From positions 744,001 to 808,000 of the forward strand of contig NZ_JACIDA010000002.1 of the NCBI RefSeq assembly GCF_014196125.1: DNA of 64,000 bases, in the 5' to 3' direction. This document shows positions 36,620 through 41,319 of the stretch, piece by piece (position 1 is the first letter of the stretch; each line of letters starts with the position of its first letter). Both the position numbers and the translations under genes were made by a program. Source of the stretch: Brevundimonas mediterranea (lineage in GTDB: Bacteria; Pseudomonadota; Alphaproteobacteria; Caulobacterales; Caulobacteraceae). Below the pieces are notes generated by a model that saw only the letters and a program-made list of their open reading frames with translations, searched no databases and had not been told where the DNA came from.

Positions 36620-37020
36620 ACGCCGCTACCACACCGCTACCAAAAATCTTTTGCTGGCGAGCGCTCGCCTGTCCATTGGCATGGCGCATTGCGGTGAAGG
36701 CCCCTGAAATCTGCTGAAAAGACCGAACTAATTTTTGCGGAGATCGACCCGCGAGCAGGTCACGGGAAAATAGTGCCTTGGAATGTTGTTGCCCGCAGCT
36801 TCTTGCCTCGTATCCGTCAACCGCCGCCTTTGACTCTCTGAAGGATCCCGCGGGGTTTGGCGACGGTCAGGGTGTCGCGGTCTCGGCGCGGTCCCGAGCG
36901 ATTGCTGTTCACCGTCCTGTAGTGACCTTAATAGGACCGGCCCGGTCTATCGCTCGTCCGCACGTCGGACTTCGCGGACGTCTGGCCGGCGTCGGCCGCC
37001 TGTCTGACCAAGGACCTGTG
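36620..37020. other. Gap between tRNA-Gly and arsH; possible gene remnant
   Basis: Holds two copies of CCGCTACCA 11 bp apart (36623 and 36634) just after the tRNA terminator. A 40-codon frame without a start (about 36700-36836, plus) reads [13 protein letters not shown], which resembles the tail of a carbon-nitrogen hydrolase, and stops at TGA. I take it as a remnant at best. CTGTAGTGACCTTAATAGGACC near 36920 may hold the arsH promoter, unproved. Confidence 0.4.
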
Positions 37021-37776
37021 ATGACCTTCACCCGCCTGCGCTCGCTGCCGGACCCGGATCATCTGCCGGCTCTGGACGCGGCCTATCTGTCCGCCGATCC
37101 CGCCCGTGGACTGGGCCCGACCGAGCCGGCGCCGCGTATCCTTCTCCTGTACGGATCGCTGCGCGAGCGGTCGTATTCGCGGTTCTGCGTCGAGGAAGCG
37201 GCCCGCCTGCTGCAGCAAATGGGATGCGAGACCCGCATCTTCGACCCCACCGACCTGCCCCTGCCGGGCGCGCCCGGCGACGACGACCACCCGGCGGTGC
37301 GCGAGTTGCGCGAACACGCCTTGTGGTCGGAGGGCATGGTCTGGTGCAGCCCGGAGCGGCACGGCCAGGTCTCCGGACTGATGAAGCTGCAGATCGATCA
37401 CCTGCCGTTGAGCCTGGGCGGCATGCGCCCGACCCAGGGCCGGACGCTCGCCGTCATGCAGGTGTCGGGCGGGTCCCAGAGCTTCAACGCCGTCAACACT
37501 CTGCGCCTTCTGGGCCGCTGGATGCGGATGGTCACCATCCCCAACCAGTCGAGCGTGGCCAAGGCCTTCCAGGAATTCGACGAGGCCGGCCGGATGAAAC
37601 CCTCGGCCTACTATGAGCGGATTGTCGATGTGATGGAGGAACTGGTGCGCTTCACCATCCTGGTCCGGCCCCACGCCGTTCAGCTCGTGGACCGCTATTC
37701 GGAGCGCAAGGCGGCCGGAGTTTTGGTGGATGCCGCGTCCGACCTCTCGGCCATTGCTATCGCACGCCAGGCCTGA
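37021..37776 (+). CDS. arsH: ArsH-type NADPH-dependent FMN reductase
   Basis: A 251-residue flavoprotein. [25 protein letters not shown] (about 40-64) is the FMN phosphate loop of ArsH, and [23 protein letters not shown] the second flavin-contact region; [23 protein letters not shown] follows. ArsH oxidises trivalent organoarsenicals and also reduces quinones and azo dyes. No arsR, arsB or arsC lies beside it, so the arsenic role rests on family alone. It is the first intact gene after the tRNA and opens the accessory region. Confidence 0.9.
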
Positions 37777-37892: not shown

Positions 37893-39002
37893 TTATCCTC
37901 GATCGACCAGAGAATAGCTTGTGCTGCGTCCCCCGCCGTCATCCTTCACGAGGATGCCCCGGTCCACCAGATCTTTGATGTCGCGCAAGGCCGTGTCGGG
38001 CGAGGACTTCGTCAGCGCCGCCCATTTGGTCGAGGTGAGCTTGCCTTCGAAGCCGTCGGGCAGCCGGTTGATGACCGTGCTCTGGCGCTCGCTCAACGTC
38101 TGACCTGCGAGCGCCTCCCAGAAGCGCGCCTTGCGCATCACATGGGTCAGGGTGGTTTCCGCGCCGTCGAATGCGCGATCGAGGCAGCCGAGGAACCAGT
38201 CCAGCCAGAGGGTCACGTCCAGCGCGCCTTTCTGGGTCGTCTCCAGGGTCGCGTAGTAGTCCTTGCGCTCCAGCCGGATCTGGGCGGACATGCTGTAGAA
38301 CCGCTGGGCGCTTTTCTCGGAACGGGCGAGCGCCATGTCGGCGATCGCCCGGGCGATCCGGCCGTTCCCGTCGTCGAACGGGTGGATGGTCACGAACCAC
38401 AGGTGGGCGATCGCGGCCTTGAGGACCGGATCCGTCCGCGGCTCGTCAGTGAACCAGTCGAGGAACGCGCGCATCTCGTCCTGCAGACGGGCGGCGGGCG
38501 GCGCTTCATAGTGCACGCGCTCTCGTCCGAAGGGGCCCGAGACGACCTGCATCGGGCCGGAGCTCTCGTTGCGCCAGGCGCCGACGACGATCTTCGTCAT
38601 GCCGCTGCGTCCGGTCGGAAACAGGGCGGCGTGCCAGCCGAACAGCCGTTCCTCGGTGAGCGGAGACGCAAAGTTCTGGGTCGCGTCGAGCATCATTTCG
38701 ACGACGCCTTCGACGTTGCGATCCGCGGGGGCGAGGGCCCCGATATCCATGCCGAGGCGGCGGGCGATGGAGGATCGCACCTGATCCTTGTCGAGCAGCT
38801 CGCCTTCGATTTCGCTGGATTTCAGGACATCTTCGGTAAGGGTCTCGAGGACGGCTTCAGCGCGGAGGTCGAAGCCGAGCGTGTGCATCCGGCCAAGCAG
38901 AAGGCCTTGGCGATGACGGACGGCTGGGAGGCGATCGGCAAGCGCGTCAGCGCGCCATTCCAGACGCGGCCAGCCTTCGATCTCATGGATGTATTGCGCC
39001 AT
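37893..39002 (-). CDS. Fic family protein with N-terminal inhibitory helix and C-terminal winged helix
   Basis: A 369-residue enzyme that probably transfers AMP to hydroxyl groups of proteins. The N-terminal DUF4172 part contains the self-inhibition motif [S/T]-x3-E-[G/N] as Ser62...Glu66-Gly67 (SSEIEG). The Fic core HPFDDGNGR starts at His207. Residues about 300-369 (LSERQSTVINRLPDG, TALRDIKDLVDRGILVKDDGG) look like a winged-helix DNA-binding domain. The ATG at 39002 has AAGGAG eight bases upstream; a GTG nine bases earlier is less likely. Two palindromes cover the start and upstream region (39001-39079), suggesting that the protein controls its own gene. No antitoxin gene is present because the inhibitor is built in. 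Confidence 0.9.
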   Translation of the reverse strand: MAQYIHEIEGWPRLEWRADALADRLPAVRHRQGLLLGRMHTLGFDLRAEAVLETLTEDVLKSSEIEGELLDKDQVRSSIARRLGMDIGALAPADRNVEGVVEMMLDATQNFASPLTEERLFGWHAALFPTGRSGMTKIVVGAWRNESSGPMQVVSGPFGRERVHYEAPPAARLQDEMRAFLDWFTDEPRTDPVLKAAIAHLWFVTIHPFDDGNGRIARAIADMALARSEKSAQRFYSMSAQIRLERKDYYATLETTQKGALDVTLWLDWFLGCLDRAFDGAETTLTHVMRKARFWEALAGQTLSERQSTVINRLPDGFEGKLTSTKWAALTKSSPDTALRDIKDLVDRGILVKDDGGGRSTSYSLVDRG

Positions 39003-39079
39003 TCCCCGCACTCCTTGCGGGGAATATGGGCGTTATGCGCCGCAGGAGCAAGGCTGTTCTCCGCGTGAAGTGCGGAGAA
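39001..39079 (-). promoter_or_regulatory. Tandem palindromes at the fic start (operator and/or RBS hairpin)
   Basis: ATTCCCCGC (39001-39009), spacer of 7, GCGGGGAAT (39017-39025); then TTCTCCGC (39057-39064), spacer of 7, GCGGAGAA (39072-39079). A half-site ATCTCCGC lies at 39091. Arms and spacers agree between the two. In the fic mRNA the first palindrome is a 9-bp hairpin whose loop is AAGGAGT, the ribosome site, and whose 3' arm ends inside the AUG. Confidence 0.65.
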
Positions 39080-39226
39080 TAGGACGCCTAATCTCCGCAC
39101 CAAGGGAGGCCTCGCACACTATAGGCGGCCCCCGCACCCTGGGTATCCGCGGACTGCGCGGCTATCGGCGCCCAAGGAGCTCCGAAACCCGCGGGCCGCA
39201 GTTGGGCCTCAGGCGGAGACGCCCGC

Positions 39227-41158
39227 TCAAGAGGCTGGGCGCGCGCCCTTCGGCGCCGCATGCCGGGAGAAGCCGACCACGAGGATAGCAATCGTCAGAA
39301 GCTGAACGGCGACGCCCTCGACCGTCGGATAAAGACCGAGGATCTCGATGCGGGGGATCCACTCCAGCGGATGGACATCGAGCCAGCCCGCCTCCTGCAG
39401 CGCAGCCACGCCCTTGCCGACGAGGACGACCGACAGGATGGCCATGAGGATCGAGCTCAGCGAGAAGAACCGGCCGATCGGGAGGCGCATGCTGTAGGCC
39501 AGCAAGGCCCAGGCCACCACGGCCAGGATGGCCACCGCCGTCAGGGCGCCGGCCAGCATGCCGAGATGGCCGCCCTGGCTCCAGATCGCCGCATAGAAGA
39601 GGATGGTCTCGAACACCTCGCGATAGACGACGATGAAGGCCAGCAGGAACAGGAACCAGGCCGACCGCTTCGACAGCGCGTGGGAGAGCTTGTCGCGGAT
39701 ATAGGTCTGCCAGGCGTCGGCGTGCGACTTCCCATGCATCCAGATGCCGACCGAGACGAGCACCACGGCCGCCAGGAGCGAGCCGAATCCTTCGGTGAGC
39801 TCCCGGCTGGCGCCGCTGATGGAGATGAAGAAGGTCGCGGCCGCCCAGGTGGCGCCGCCGGCGACCAGCGCGGCCACCCAGCCGCCGTGGACGTAGCGCA
39901 GCACCTCGGGCCGTTCGGCCTTCCTCAGGAAGGCGATCATCGCCACCACGATGAGGATGGCTTCCAGCCCTTCGCGCAGCAGGATGGTGAAAGCGCCGAG
40001 GAAGCTGGCGAGATTGTCCGCCTCCTGGGGCGCGAGGGCGCGTTCGGCCGTGTCCAGCAGGGCGTTCGCGCGGGCGACCCGGTCCGCGACCTCCTGGGTC
40101 GGCGCGCGCCTGCTGATCGAGATGCGCAGGTCGGTCATGGCCGTCTCGACCCGCCGCAGCAAGACGCCGTCACGAGCGCCGAGCGCCGGCTCCACCGGTT
40201 CGACGCCGTCGAGATAGGCCGAGAGGGCGAGGTCGGTCGCGGCCTTGCGGTCGCCCCGGCGATAGGCGGCCTCGCTTTCGGCCAGTCGCGTCCGGGCCAG
40301 GGTCAGGGTCGATCCCTCGGCGCGAACCGTCGCCTCGGGATGGCGACGCAGGTGAGCGATGACCGCCCGCGCCTTCGTCTCGCCGATCCTTGTCGCCAGC
40401 TCCGCCGGGGTGGCCTGGGTGAGGGCGGCCAGGTCAGGGAACGCGGCGCGGATCGCCGCGTCGCTCTCCCAGAGGCGTCGACCTTCGGCGGCTTCGGCGT
40501 CGGTGAAGGCGAACCGGCCCACGTAGAAGGCCAAGGCCCAGCGATCCTCGGCCGGCAGATGGGCGAAGCTGGCCATGGCCGTGCCCTCGAGCCCCTGATC
40601 GATCACCTGGTAGAGGCCGAACACGCTGCGCTGACGGGCGCGCTCCACATCCGCGAAGGCGATCGCAGGCGGGTCGAGCCCCTCGGCGCCCGGTCCGTCG
40701 GCGCGTCCGGTCACGCCATGGCAGACCGAGCATTGCTCGGCATAGAGGGTCGCGCCGCGGGCCAGATCAGGCGGGAACGAAGGCGCGAGCGGGCTCGGAT
40801 AGGCCGCCAGCACCGCGCCGGCCAGCGCCTTGGCCCGGGCCCCGACGACCCCCGGGTCGGCCTTGTCGAGGATGGCCGCCTGCAGGGCCTCCGCGTCACG
40901 GATCAGGCCGGCCTTGGCCGGGTTCGGCGGCAGGGCGTCCAGGCGGGTCCGGATCTGGCCGCCGAACTCGATCATCTCGCCGTATTCGGCCGGATTGGTC
41001 ACCTGACCATTGGCAACCGCGCCGGCATAGTCGACCGCCACATAGTCGAGCAGTCGCCAGGCGACCTGGGCCTCGGAGGCGGACGGCGCCTGGGCCAGGG
41101 CGGGTGCGGACAGCCCCATCGCAAGCATCAGGGCGAAAAGGCGGAGCAGAGGGCGCAT
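39227..41158 (-). CDS. Cytochrome-c/FTR1 fusion iron permease
   Basis: A 643-residue protein. A signal peptide (GLSAPALAQA) leads a periplasmic part of about 370 residues that includes a class I cytochrome c site, CSVCHG near residue 140 with a later Met. A hydrophobic C-terminal half carries seven helices with the two R-E-x2-E iron motifs of FTR1/EfeU permeases: LREGLEAIL and VYREVFETIL. The fusion probably oxidises ferrous iron with the attached heme and passes it through the permease. Many alphaproteobacteria have similar fusions. I start at 41158; the open frame before it lacks signal character. No EfeO or EfeB gene is adjacent. Confidence 0.9.
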   Translation of the reverse strand: MRPLLRLFALMLAMGLSAPALAQAPSASEAQVAWRLLDYVAVDYAGAVANGQVTNPAEYGEMIEFGGQIRTRLDALPPNPAKAGLIRDAEALQAAILDKADPGVVGARAKALAGAVLAAYPSPLAPSFPPDLARGATLYAEQCSVCHGVTGRADGPGAEGLDPPAIAFADVERARQRSVFGLYQVIDQGLEGTAMASFAHLPAEDRWALAFYVGRFAFTDAEAAEGRRLWESDAAIRAAFPDLAALTQATPAELATRIGETKARAVIAHLRRHPEATVRAEGSTLTLARTRLAESEAAYRRGDRKAATDLALSAYLDGVEPVEPALGARDGVLLRRVETAMTDLRISISRRAPTQEVADRVARANALLDTAERALAPQEADNLASFLGAFTILLREGLEAILIVVAMIAFLRKAERPEVLRYVHGGWVAALVAGGATWAAATFFISISGASRELTEGFGSLLAAVVLVSVGIWMHGKSHADAWQTYIRDKLSHALSKRSAWFLFLLAFIVVYREVFETILFYAAIWSQGGHLGMLAGALTAVAILAVVAWALLAYSMRLPIGRFFSLSSILMAILSVVLVGKGVAALQEAGWLDVHPLEWIPRIEILGLYPTVEGVAVQLLTIAILVVGFSRHAAPKGARPAS

Positions 41159-41319
41159 GGGAGACCTAGTTGTGAGCGGCTCGCAATAGCATTCAGGCGA
41201 CGGCACTGTCGCGCTTTATTCGCGACGCGGCCGGGCTCGCAGGCGGCGACGGCTCCCCGTCCGCCGAGACGCCACGGCGCTGCGTGGCCAGCCCGGGCAG
41301 CTACGCGGCGCGGCGCTCG

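What the first reader, a model, noticed from the sequence alone, without database searches (positions are those of the whole stretch)
39001..39098. Fic gene start is wrapped in twin palindromes, one with the ribosome site in its loop
Two inverted repeats of like sequence (ATTCCCCGC-N7-GCGGGGAAT and TTCTCCGC-N7-GCGGAGAA), plus a half-site ATCTCCGC, lie within 100 bp. Their centres are 55 bp apart. In the mRNA the first forms a 9-bp hairpin that shows AAGGAGT as its loop and runs into the AUG. The Fic protein also carries a C-terminal winged helix. This suggests self-control at two levels, as repressor on DNA and as RNA structure, for an AMPylator that already has a built-in inhibitory helix.
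Basis: partly seen in the sequence, partly recalled or inferred. Interest (0 to 1): 0.65.

Follow-up and report, generated by a model that had tools for sequence, protein, structure and literature searches.

The report
Self-repression switch of a Fic enzyme
A bacterial enzyme that tags proteins with AMP appears to shut off its own gene by binding a ladder of six short DNA marks laid over its promoter, and the letters of those marks change in step with the part of the enzyme that would read them.

Summary
The palindromes are real and form part of something larger. On the gene strand (minus), six 10-bp half-sites (TGCGGNGAWT) tile 39099-39001, up to the start codon, as two forward-reverse-forward modules. 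A sigma-70-like promoter is interleaved: -35 between the modules, -10 overlapping site 5. The array recurs in DUF4172-Fic genes from records labelled as several phyla: detector score >=9 in 269 of 321 unique loci, 0 of 321 shuffled. Other subfamilies keep the geometry (forward-to-reverse mostly 19 bp) but use other letters, which follow the first residues of the Fic protein's own recognition helix. A rule fixed on one set (residue 336 predicts base 3: 193/195) held for 63/67 new loci; the four misses are all Arg336. So the protein very probably binds its own promoter and represses itself, as shown experimentally for CccR. The RNA reading is weakly supported: the predicted transcript starts at the end of the upstream arm, so the gene's own mRNA should lack the hairpin. 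Yet the leader palindrome has the strongest pairing signal of four, leaving room for a guard against read-through RNA. Binding, repression and transcription start were not measured.

The parts
37893..39002 (-). DUF4172-Fic protein, class II Fic with C-terminal winged helix, 369 aa (with stop codon)
   Evidence: Pfam PF13776 E 4.8e-31 and PF02661 E 1.1e-17; predicted model pLDDT 90.7; 8cil Z 42.8, 45% identity
39090..39099 (-). half-site F1 TGCGGAGATT
   Evidence: F-N9-R repeat with R2, 0 mismatches to the pattern
39071..39080 (+). half-site R2 (TGCGGAGAAT on + strand)
39056..39065 (-). half-site F3 (2 mismatches)
   Evidence: R-F palindrome with R2, 2 mismatches to the pattern
39046..39051 (-). 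-35-like element TTGCTC
   Evidence: family profile: T, T, G at 88, 80, 69% (n=136), 17-bp spacer; not called by the generic consensus scan
39035..39044 (-). half-site F4, inside the -35/-10 spacer
   Evidence: 1 mismatch
39023..39028 (-). -10-like element CATATT, overlapping R5
   Evidence: family profile CATAAT; not called by the generic scan
   Evidence: +1 is inference
39011..39016 (-). Shine-Dalgarno-like AAGGAG between R5 and F6, 8 nt before the start codon
   Evidence: sequence
39001..39010 (-). half-site F6 TGCGGGGAAT, overlapping the start codon by two bases
39000..39002 (-). start codon ATG of the Fic gene
   Evidence: sequence and homologues
37962..38000 (-). codons of predicted recognition helix, residues 335-347; residues 335-336 (Pro-Asp) are the proposed specificity residues

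Best explanation
The 100 bp are the promoter-operator of the Fic gene. Six half-sites in two forward-reverse-forward modules cover the -35, spacer, -10, start of transcription and ribosome site. The Fic protein reads them through its own C-terminal winged helix, probably as dimers that bridge a forward-reverse pair (recognition cores about 21 bp, two helical turns, apart on one DNA face), and represses its own transcription by occluding the promoter. Shown here by computation: the array, its geometry, its conservation, its restriction to Fic genes (and one likely relic) among near-perfect sites of this genome, and covariation of half-site letters with the first residues of the recognition helix. 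Inferred: physical binding, the dimer register, repression, the transcription start, and (from the relative CbFic2) that the DNA-bound dimer is also the state in which the enzyme removes rather than adds AMP.
For: (1) In 80 homologues chosen on protein alone, 5 or more half-sites (<=2 mismatches) lie in the 209-bp upstream stretch in 70 of 80, against 2 of 80 for the reversed motif; order and spacing mostly 19, 15, about 21, 19, 15 bp. (2) A detector that assumes only a repeated 10-mer beginning TG, and rewards forward-reverse pairs at 18-20 bp, scores >=9 in 269 of 321 unique loci and in 0 of 321 block-shuffled ones; 28 different cores (bases 3-6) occur. An earlier version with no spacing reward also separates real from shuffled (medians 9 and 4). 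(3) Of 365 protein columns, the two with highest normalised mutual information with bases 3-6 are residues 328 and 336, both in the wHTH. After background correction the top of 2190 pairs is residue 336 / base 3. Asp336 goes with C3, Ala/Pro336 with A3, Arg336 with C4. In-sample 193/195, new loci 63/67. (4) Within the CGG family residue 335 goes with base 6: A6 fraction 0.66 for Gln335 (n=31) against 0.08 for Ser/Thr/Asn335 (n=17), p 7.5e-8. His335 goes with T5: 3 of 4 CGT loci, 0 of 134 CGG loci, plus one new locus (L293, score 8). (5) Residues 335-336 are the first of the predicted recognition helix 335-347. (6) TTG-17 bp-CATAAT is interleaved with the array. (7) In the whole genome the five F-N9-R sites with <=1 mismatch lie at this gene (2), at a second Fic gene (2) and at what looks like a relic of a third (1). 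(8) Precedent: CccR represses its own promoter through palindromes near -35/-10, and its dimer holds the DNA-binding helices 70.2 A apart (PMC9755527, passages and section 9).
Against: No binding or expression data exist for this protein. Shared ancestry inflates the covariation: columns outside the wHTH also rank high (97, 233, 143; 76 and 25 with base 8), and residue 328 is not among the top 25 pairs after correction. On a tree of residues <=295 the Asp336/C3 link is one deep gain plus losses in single loci; of ten inferred changes at residue 336, three (L261, L137, L230) left base 3 as A. The rule for Arg336 failed on new data (0 of 4 at base 3). 20 of 321 unique loci score <7 and 32 score 7-8; 27 of 136 CGG-type loci lack a clear upstream module. 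Detector v2 rewards 18-20-bp pairs, so its spacing counts are partly built in. The generic promoter scan finds nothing in this stretch. Which half-sites pair within a dimer is unknown; two triplets do not divide obviously into three equal dimers.
Confidence: 0.88

Rival explanations
1. The leader palindrome acts as RNA: a hairpin that presents or hides the ribosome site. In its most plausible form it works only in transcripts that read through from upstream (the next gene upstream, 39227-41206, points the same way). Those carry both arms, while the gene's own mRNA starts at the end of the 5' arm and escapes. This could coexist with the operator reading.
For: R5-F6 has the highest palindrome score of the four (Watson-Crick z 4.2, with G-U z 5.4; others at most 3.6 and 3.3) and G-U pairs exceed shuffles, 38 against 31.0 sd 2.7. 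Its base-9 concordance (z 4.3, 3.9-4.0) stands out among 15 site pairs (next 2.3 and 1.7) and is not explained by residue 335. In the window the read-through leader (68 nt) folds at -24.0 kcal/mol, the own-start leader (48 nt) at -7.0; over 80 loci the 26-nt stem region averages -9.4 and the part left in own mRNA -0.2.
Against: Base-6 concordance of R5-F6 vanishes within residue-335 classes (z 3.0 to 0.5), so part of the arm matching is operator specificity. Upstream R2-F3, which should not be transcribed, is nearly as palindromic (606 against 621 of 800 pairs). The G-U minus A-C excess is only about 1.8 sd. Several marine roseobacter-type loci have a broken 3' arm and keep a ribosome-site-like stretch (L051, L056, L059, L060, L062). 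No Rfam match.
Confidence: 0.2
2. The array is bound by another regulator of the cell, not by the Fic protein.
For: No binding data; operators for global regulators also lie over promoters.
Against: Half-site letters follow the Fic protein's own recognition helix over many subfamilies and in new genomes; near-perfect sites in the genome sit at Fic genes or a likely Fic relic; the array is found with the gene in contigs labelled as several phyla.
Confidence: 0.03
3. The main job of the array is not repression but control of the enzyme: cognate DNA holds Fic as a dimer in its AMP-removing state near its own gene.
For: CbFic2, the closest solved relative (8cil), dimerises on DNA and shifts from AMPylation to deAMPylation; random DNA was used and the authors ask for a specific sequence (PMC10628234, section 15 part 1 and section 16 part 1).
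Against: The array is woven into -35, -10 and ribosome site, which enzyme control alone would not need; repression and enzyme control do not exclude each other.
Confidence: 0.08

Closest known systems
CccR of Yersinia pseudotuberculosis (PMC9755527; passages and section 9 seen)
   Same: Class II Fic with C-terminal HTH; dimer through the N-terminal helix region; represses its own promoter through inverted repeats near -35/-10.
   Different: One pair of 10-bp boxes 26 bp apart is reported, with another sequence. Here six half-sites in two modules with 9- and 5-bp gaps, and a specificity code over a whole family.
CbFic2 (CBU_0822), PDB 8cil (PMC10628234; abstract, passages, section 15 part 1 of 2 and section 16 part 1 of 2 seen)
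   Same: Closest solved relative, 45% identical over 357 residues, Z 42.8; DUF4172-Fic-wHTH; DNA-driven dimer and activity switch.
   Different: Studied with random DNA and histone targets; no specific DNA site in what I read. I did not fetch its gene or promoter.
SoFic (3eqx, 3zcn; PADLOC PDLC03963)
   Same: Class II Fic with C-terminal wHTH; PADLOC SoFic profile hits at 142.5 bits; Sofic reported as anti-phage toxin (PMC12249575, start of abstract and passages).
   Different: NCBIfam SoFic equivalog cut-off missed by far (47.9 of 550 bits); 16% identity in the structural alignment.
phd-doc and other self-repressing toxin-antitoxin operons
   Same: A toxin-like module whose own DNA-binding part represses the promoter; this parallel was already drawn for Fic-HTH fusions in PMC2686095 (passages).
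   Different: Here repressor, inhibitor helix and enzyme are one polypeptide.

Membership tests
DUF4172-Fic proteins | PF13776 followed by PF02661 | tested here: met
   107.3 bits (cut-off 25) and 65.1 bits (cut-off 24)
[quoted passage not shown]
   HPFDDGNGRIAR at residues 207-218; definition from PMC9755527
Class II Fic AMP transferases | inhibitory motif (S/T)xxxE(G/N) N-terminal to the Fic motif | tested here: met
   SSEIEG at 62-67; E66 and G67 invariant in 54 sequences; definition from PMC9755527
Class II Fic AMP transferases | AMP transfer or removal by the protein | not testable with these tools
   needs an assay
CccR-type self-repressing Fic | C-terminal winged helix-turn-helix | tested here: met
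   predicted helices 305-316, 324-331, 335-347, strands 351-353, 363-365; match to 8cil over 1-369, whose paper places a wHTH at 300-367
CccR-type self-repressing Fic | inverted repeats over own -35/-10 region | tested here: met
   (promoter elements predicted, not measured)
CccR-type self-repressing Fic | protein binds the repeats and represses the promoter | not testable with these tools
   covariation only
CccR-type self-repressing Fic | same operator sequence and spacing as CccR | tested here: not met
   paper's operator compared: different letters and gap
SoFic anti-phage family | NCBIfam NF046030 equivalog cut-off | tested here: not met
   47.9 of 550 bits
SoFic anti-phage family | PADLOC SoFic profile | tested here: inconclusive
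   E 5.4e-42, 142.5 bits; no cut-off given, no defence test
RNA leader regulators | member of an RNA family described in Rfam | tested here: not met
   no match up to E 1 in 38900-39300
RNA leader regulators | compensatory arm changes beyond what DNA specificity explains | tested here: inconclusive
   base 9 and G-U signal present but modest

The most novel reading that the evidence does not exclude
Operator DNA serves as the enzyme's antitoxin. Tight self-repression would keep the cell at a handful of Fic dimers, about as many as the array can hold, so most of the enzyme sits on its own promoter as an inactive or AMP-removing dimer. Loss of that DNA or of its occupancy (for example phage breakdown of host DNA, or arrival of the gene in a cell that lacks it) would at once free monomers that add AMP and derepress the gene, giving an abortive-infection or zygotic-induction switch in one gene. 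A resident copy with the same code would silence an incoming copy. Nothing here tests this; it is not excluded.
Probability: 0.1. Interest if true: 0.85.

Novelty: new variant of a known kind. Interest (0 to 1): 0.62.

Why it matters
In the papers I saw, self-repression by a Fic protein is shown for one protein, CccR. Here the same logic appears as a family-wide rule: a nearly fixed operator geometry, interleaved with the promoter, and a readable code between two residues of the enzyme and the letters of its DNA site. It hands a specific candidate DNA ligand to the DUF4172-Fic family, whose member CbFic2 was assayed on random DNA; its authors name the specific sequence as work to be done (PMC10628234). 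It also provides a natural series of re-coded repressor-operator pairs, which makes the link between DNA binding and AMP addition or removal directly testable. In the listings and passages seen I met no report of this array or code; subscription papers and preprints were not searched.

Tried and rejected
Rfam search of the leader: nothing. Generic sigma-70 scan: nothing in this stretch; the promoter call rests on the family profile. Iteron, CRISPR or mobile-element ends: not tested, not pursued, because the array goes with this gene and its letters track its protein. Paper search for read-through protection of transposase genes: no hit; the parallel to IS10/IS50 is recalled, not sourced. Five distant Fic genes from plasmids (L373-L377; 25-29% identity; whether they hold DUF4172 was not checked): L375 scores 8 against a shuffled maximum of 6 and L373 6 against 5; L374, L376 and L377 do not exceed their shuffled maximum; not pursued. 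A viral-contig scan for the Vibrio subfamily gave one locus.

Errors and limits: L023 was read in a wrong register by detector v1; one Asp336 row still shows A3, and by the letters and the core table I take it to be this locus; it was left in the count. In one search, 94 of the 96 new loci were usable and not identical to old ones, and 70 of these passed score >=9, three sites and alignment. In one search, 193 of 227 unique loci passed the filters. Searches use 87 of 109 and 80 of 140 six-site loci after removing near-identical ones; alignment to the array (<=7 and <=8 mismatches) was a condition, so absolute conservation is inflated. Block shuffling (blocks of two bases) was used in place of a full dinucleotide model. 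Phylum labels come from record titles, many of them MAGs.

Full report
What is there. The Fic gene runs on the minus strand, 39002 to 37893, and encodes 369 residues with DUF4172 and Fic domains. Its nearest solved relative by sequence and by fold is 8cil, Coxiella CbFic2: E 2.9e-99, Z 42.8, 45% identity over 357 residues. The predicted model (pLDDT 90.7) ends in a winged helix-turn-helix whose recognition helix is residues 335-347. In fact six half-sites of the form TGCGGNGAWT, two of them with 1-2 mismatches, lie upstream. In gene order they are F1 39090-39099, R2 39071-39080, F3 39056-39065, F4 39035-39044, R5 39016-39025 and F6 39001-39010. They form two F-R-F modules with start-to-start spacings 19 and 15, and 21 between the modules.

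More than chance. In the window the half-site motif occurs 5 times against 1.6 expected, and 4 of those are here. In the 3.4-Mb genome, F-N9-R with up to 3 mismatches gives 9 places, against 2 for the reversed pattern. The five with 0-1 mismatch are the two modules here, the two modules of a second DUF4172-Fic gene (C3:65.8 kb; 273 of 366 aligned positions identical to the window protein), and one module at C3:53.6 kb. R-N5-F with up to 3 mismatches gives 6 places against 2; the five with 0-2 mismatches are the same three loci. The place at 53.6 kb has the same upstream flank as the second Fic gene (734 of 788 positions identical) and, after the module, letters like a Fic start and then a HipA-like frame (HipA is my reading of the translation, not a search). 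I read it as a relic of a third copy. No other gene carries a near-perfect array, so a broad regulon looks unlikely, though weaker sites were not studied.

Conservation. The protein query returned 80 loci with 65-100% identity, in records labelled Alphaproteobacteria, Acidobacteria, Nitrospira, Bacteroidota (Runella), Chloroflexi, Verrucomicrobia, Planctomycetales and others (many are MAGs, so labels can err). Upstream, 70 of 80 have 5 or more half-sites with up to 2 mismatches against 2 of 80 for the reversed motif; one (L055) has none. The order and the 19/15 spacings recur in most. The gap between modules varies from 18 to 23 (mode 21; n=109 of 136 loci). Of the 49 viral-contig and 13 plasmid homologues, most close ones show the same array by eye and the distant ones show other letters. 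DUF4172 matches occur in 86 of 398 Pseudomonadota genomes, 71 of 369 in the class of G058 and 38 of 289 in the window's class.

The same ladder with other letters. A detector that looks only for a repeated 10-mer beginning TG scored 5/7/9/11/14 (5th to 95th percentile) on 227 unique upstream regions and 3/3/4/4/5 on block-shuffled ones. A second version that also rewards F-R pairs at 18-20 bp reached 9 or more in 196 of 227 old and 73 of 94 new loci, and in 0 of 321 shuffled; 32 score 7-8 and 20 below 7. Families found include TGCGGNGAAT, TGAGCCGAAT, TGAGGCGAAT, TGAGCTATAG, TGATTAATAA, TGATTTGAAT, TGAAGCGATT, TGTCCTATAT and TGGCGTGATT. Forward-to-reverse spacing is 19 bp in 388 of 455 adjacent pairs. 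Reverse-to-forward is 15 in 244 of 286 (CGG type) and 40 of 54 (GAWT type), and 25-26 in 31 of 41 (ATA type), about one helical turn more (part of the F-R count is favoured by detector v2, but the same spacings show).

The code. Proteins were aligned and compared with each locus's half-site consensus (193 loci, effective number 94). Of 365 columns the two best for bases 3-6 are residues 328 and 336, both in the wHTH; the next ones (97, 233, 143) are outside it, which shows the share of common ancestry. After correction for background, residue 336 with base 3 is first of 2190 pairs (z 6.6) and residue 334 with base 4 is fifth (5.2); in between are 358/base 8, 76/base 8 (outside the wHTH) and 321/base 3; residue 328 drops out of the top 25. 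Asp336 goes with C3, Ala or Pro336 with A3. Two Bradyrhizobium loci inside the CGG clade (L009, L034) have lost Asp336 and show drifting half-sites. The tree built on residues up to 295 shows that the Asp/C link is one deep gain with losses in single loci. Of ten inferred changes at residue 336, some go with a base change (Arg336 with TC; Thr336 with GG; a Pro336 clade with AT) and three do not (L261, L137, L230). I then fixed the rule on loci L001-L276 (193 of 195 as predicted) and applied it to loci L277-L372. Of 70 that passed, 67 had a residue in the rule and 63 were as predicted: Asp 43/43, Ala or Pro 20/20, Arg 0/4. These loci are new but belong largely to the same clades, so the test is not phylogenetically independent. 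The Arg misses share C at base 4 with the earlier Arg loci (7 of 7), so the rule for Arg is better stated for base 4; that is after the fact. Residue 335 goes with base 6 (Gln with A, Ser/Thr/Asn with T; p 7.5e-8), and His335 with T at base 5 (3 of 4 CGT against 0 of 134 CGG; one new case, L293, detector score 8). Residues 335 and 336 open the recognition helix, where sequence readers usually sit (recalled knowledge).

Promoter and geometry. Aligning 136 CGG-type loci shows TTG 26 bases before R5 and CATAAT ending inside R5, with a 17-bp spacer that holds F4. In the window these are TTGCTC (39046-39051) and CATATT (39023-39028); the generic scan did not call them. A start 6-8 bases downstream of the -10 falls at 39015-39017, the end of R5. 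Taking bases 3-6 as the recognition core, the cores of an F-R pair lie 21 bp apart, about 71 A in B-DNA (my arithmetic). The CccR dimer holds its DNA helices 70.2 A apart (PMC9755527, section 9). I infer one dimer per F-R pair. How F3 and F6 are used is open.

The RNA reading. Within-locus matching of half-sites at base 6 is largely explained by residue 335: R5-F6 falls from z 3.0 to 0.5 within residue-335 classes. Base 9 is different: R5-F6 matches at z 4.3 and 3.9-4.0, and the next of 15 pairs reach 2.3 and 1.7. Across ten positions R5-F6 has the best Watson-Crick z (4.2) and, with G-U, 5.4; R2-F3, upstream of the promoter, has 3.6 and 3.3. G-U pairs are 38 against 31.0 sd 2.7 in shuffles; the G-U minus A-C excess is 11 against 5.9 sd 2.9. 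So some pairing constraint on the leader may exist. As the gene's own mRNA should start at the end of the 5' arm, the natural use would be in read-through RNA: predicted -24.0 kcal/mol (68 nt) against -7.0 (48 nt), with an upstream gene in the same direction (39227-41206, an EfeU-like iron permease with a cytochrome-like part). I give this 0.2 as an added function.

What is known. Fic-HTH fusions were proposed to regulate their own expression in 2009 (PMC2686095, passages). CccR was shown to do so, with inverted repeats near -35/-10 (PMC9755527, passages). CbFic2 binds random DNA, dimerises on it and shifts to AMP removal; the authors ask for a specific sequence (PMC10628234, section 15 part 1 and section 16 part 1). 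The array, its geometry and the code appear in none of the listings or passages I saw. I therefore call it a new variant of a known kind.

What stays open. Binding, repression, start site, dimer register and the enzyme's target are not measured. The protein scores with the PADLOC SoFic profile but fails the NCBIfam SoFic cut-off, so a defence role is only a lead.

Noticed in passing
G000:C3:65808-65907 (L084): A second DUF4172-Fic gene in the same genome carries its own six-site array and also has Asp336, so cross-repression of the two copies is expected; it lies beside a replication-protein-like frame (my reading of the translation).
   Followed up: partly
G000:C3:53646-53689 (L379): One F-R-F module upstream of a HipA-like frame, with the same flank as the second Fic gene: probable relic of a third Fic gene.
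   Followed up: partly
L237, L238, L243, L246, L263 and similar (ATA-type subfamily): The last reverse half-site runs into the ATG, so these genes may have very short or no leaders; not tested.
   Followed up: no
L375 (Citrobacter tructae plasmid): A distant Fic gene also shows array-like repeats upstream (score 8, shuffled maximum 6).
   Followed up: no
window 36781-37773 (+): ArsH (arsenical resistance, 376 bits) lies just past the 3' end of the Fic gene, facing it.
   Followed up: no
window 39227-41206 (-): Upstream gene joins a cytochrome-like part to an EfeU/Ftr1-like iron permease in one frame (hits below the curated cut-offs).
   Followed up: no
L086-L134: 49 contigs classed as viral encode relatives of this Fic protein (54-75% identity), most with the array by eye; whether these are true phage cargo was not checked.
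   Followed up: no
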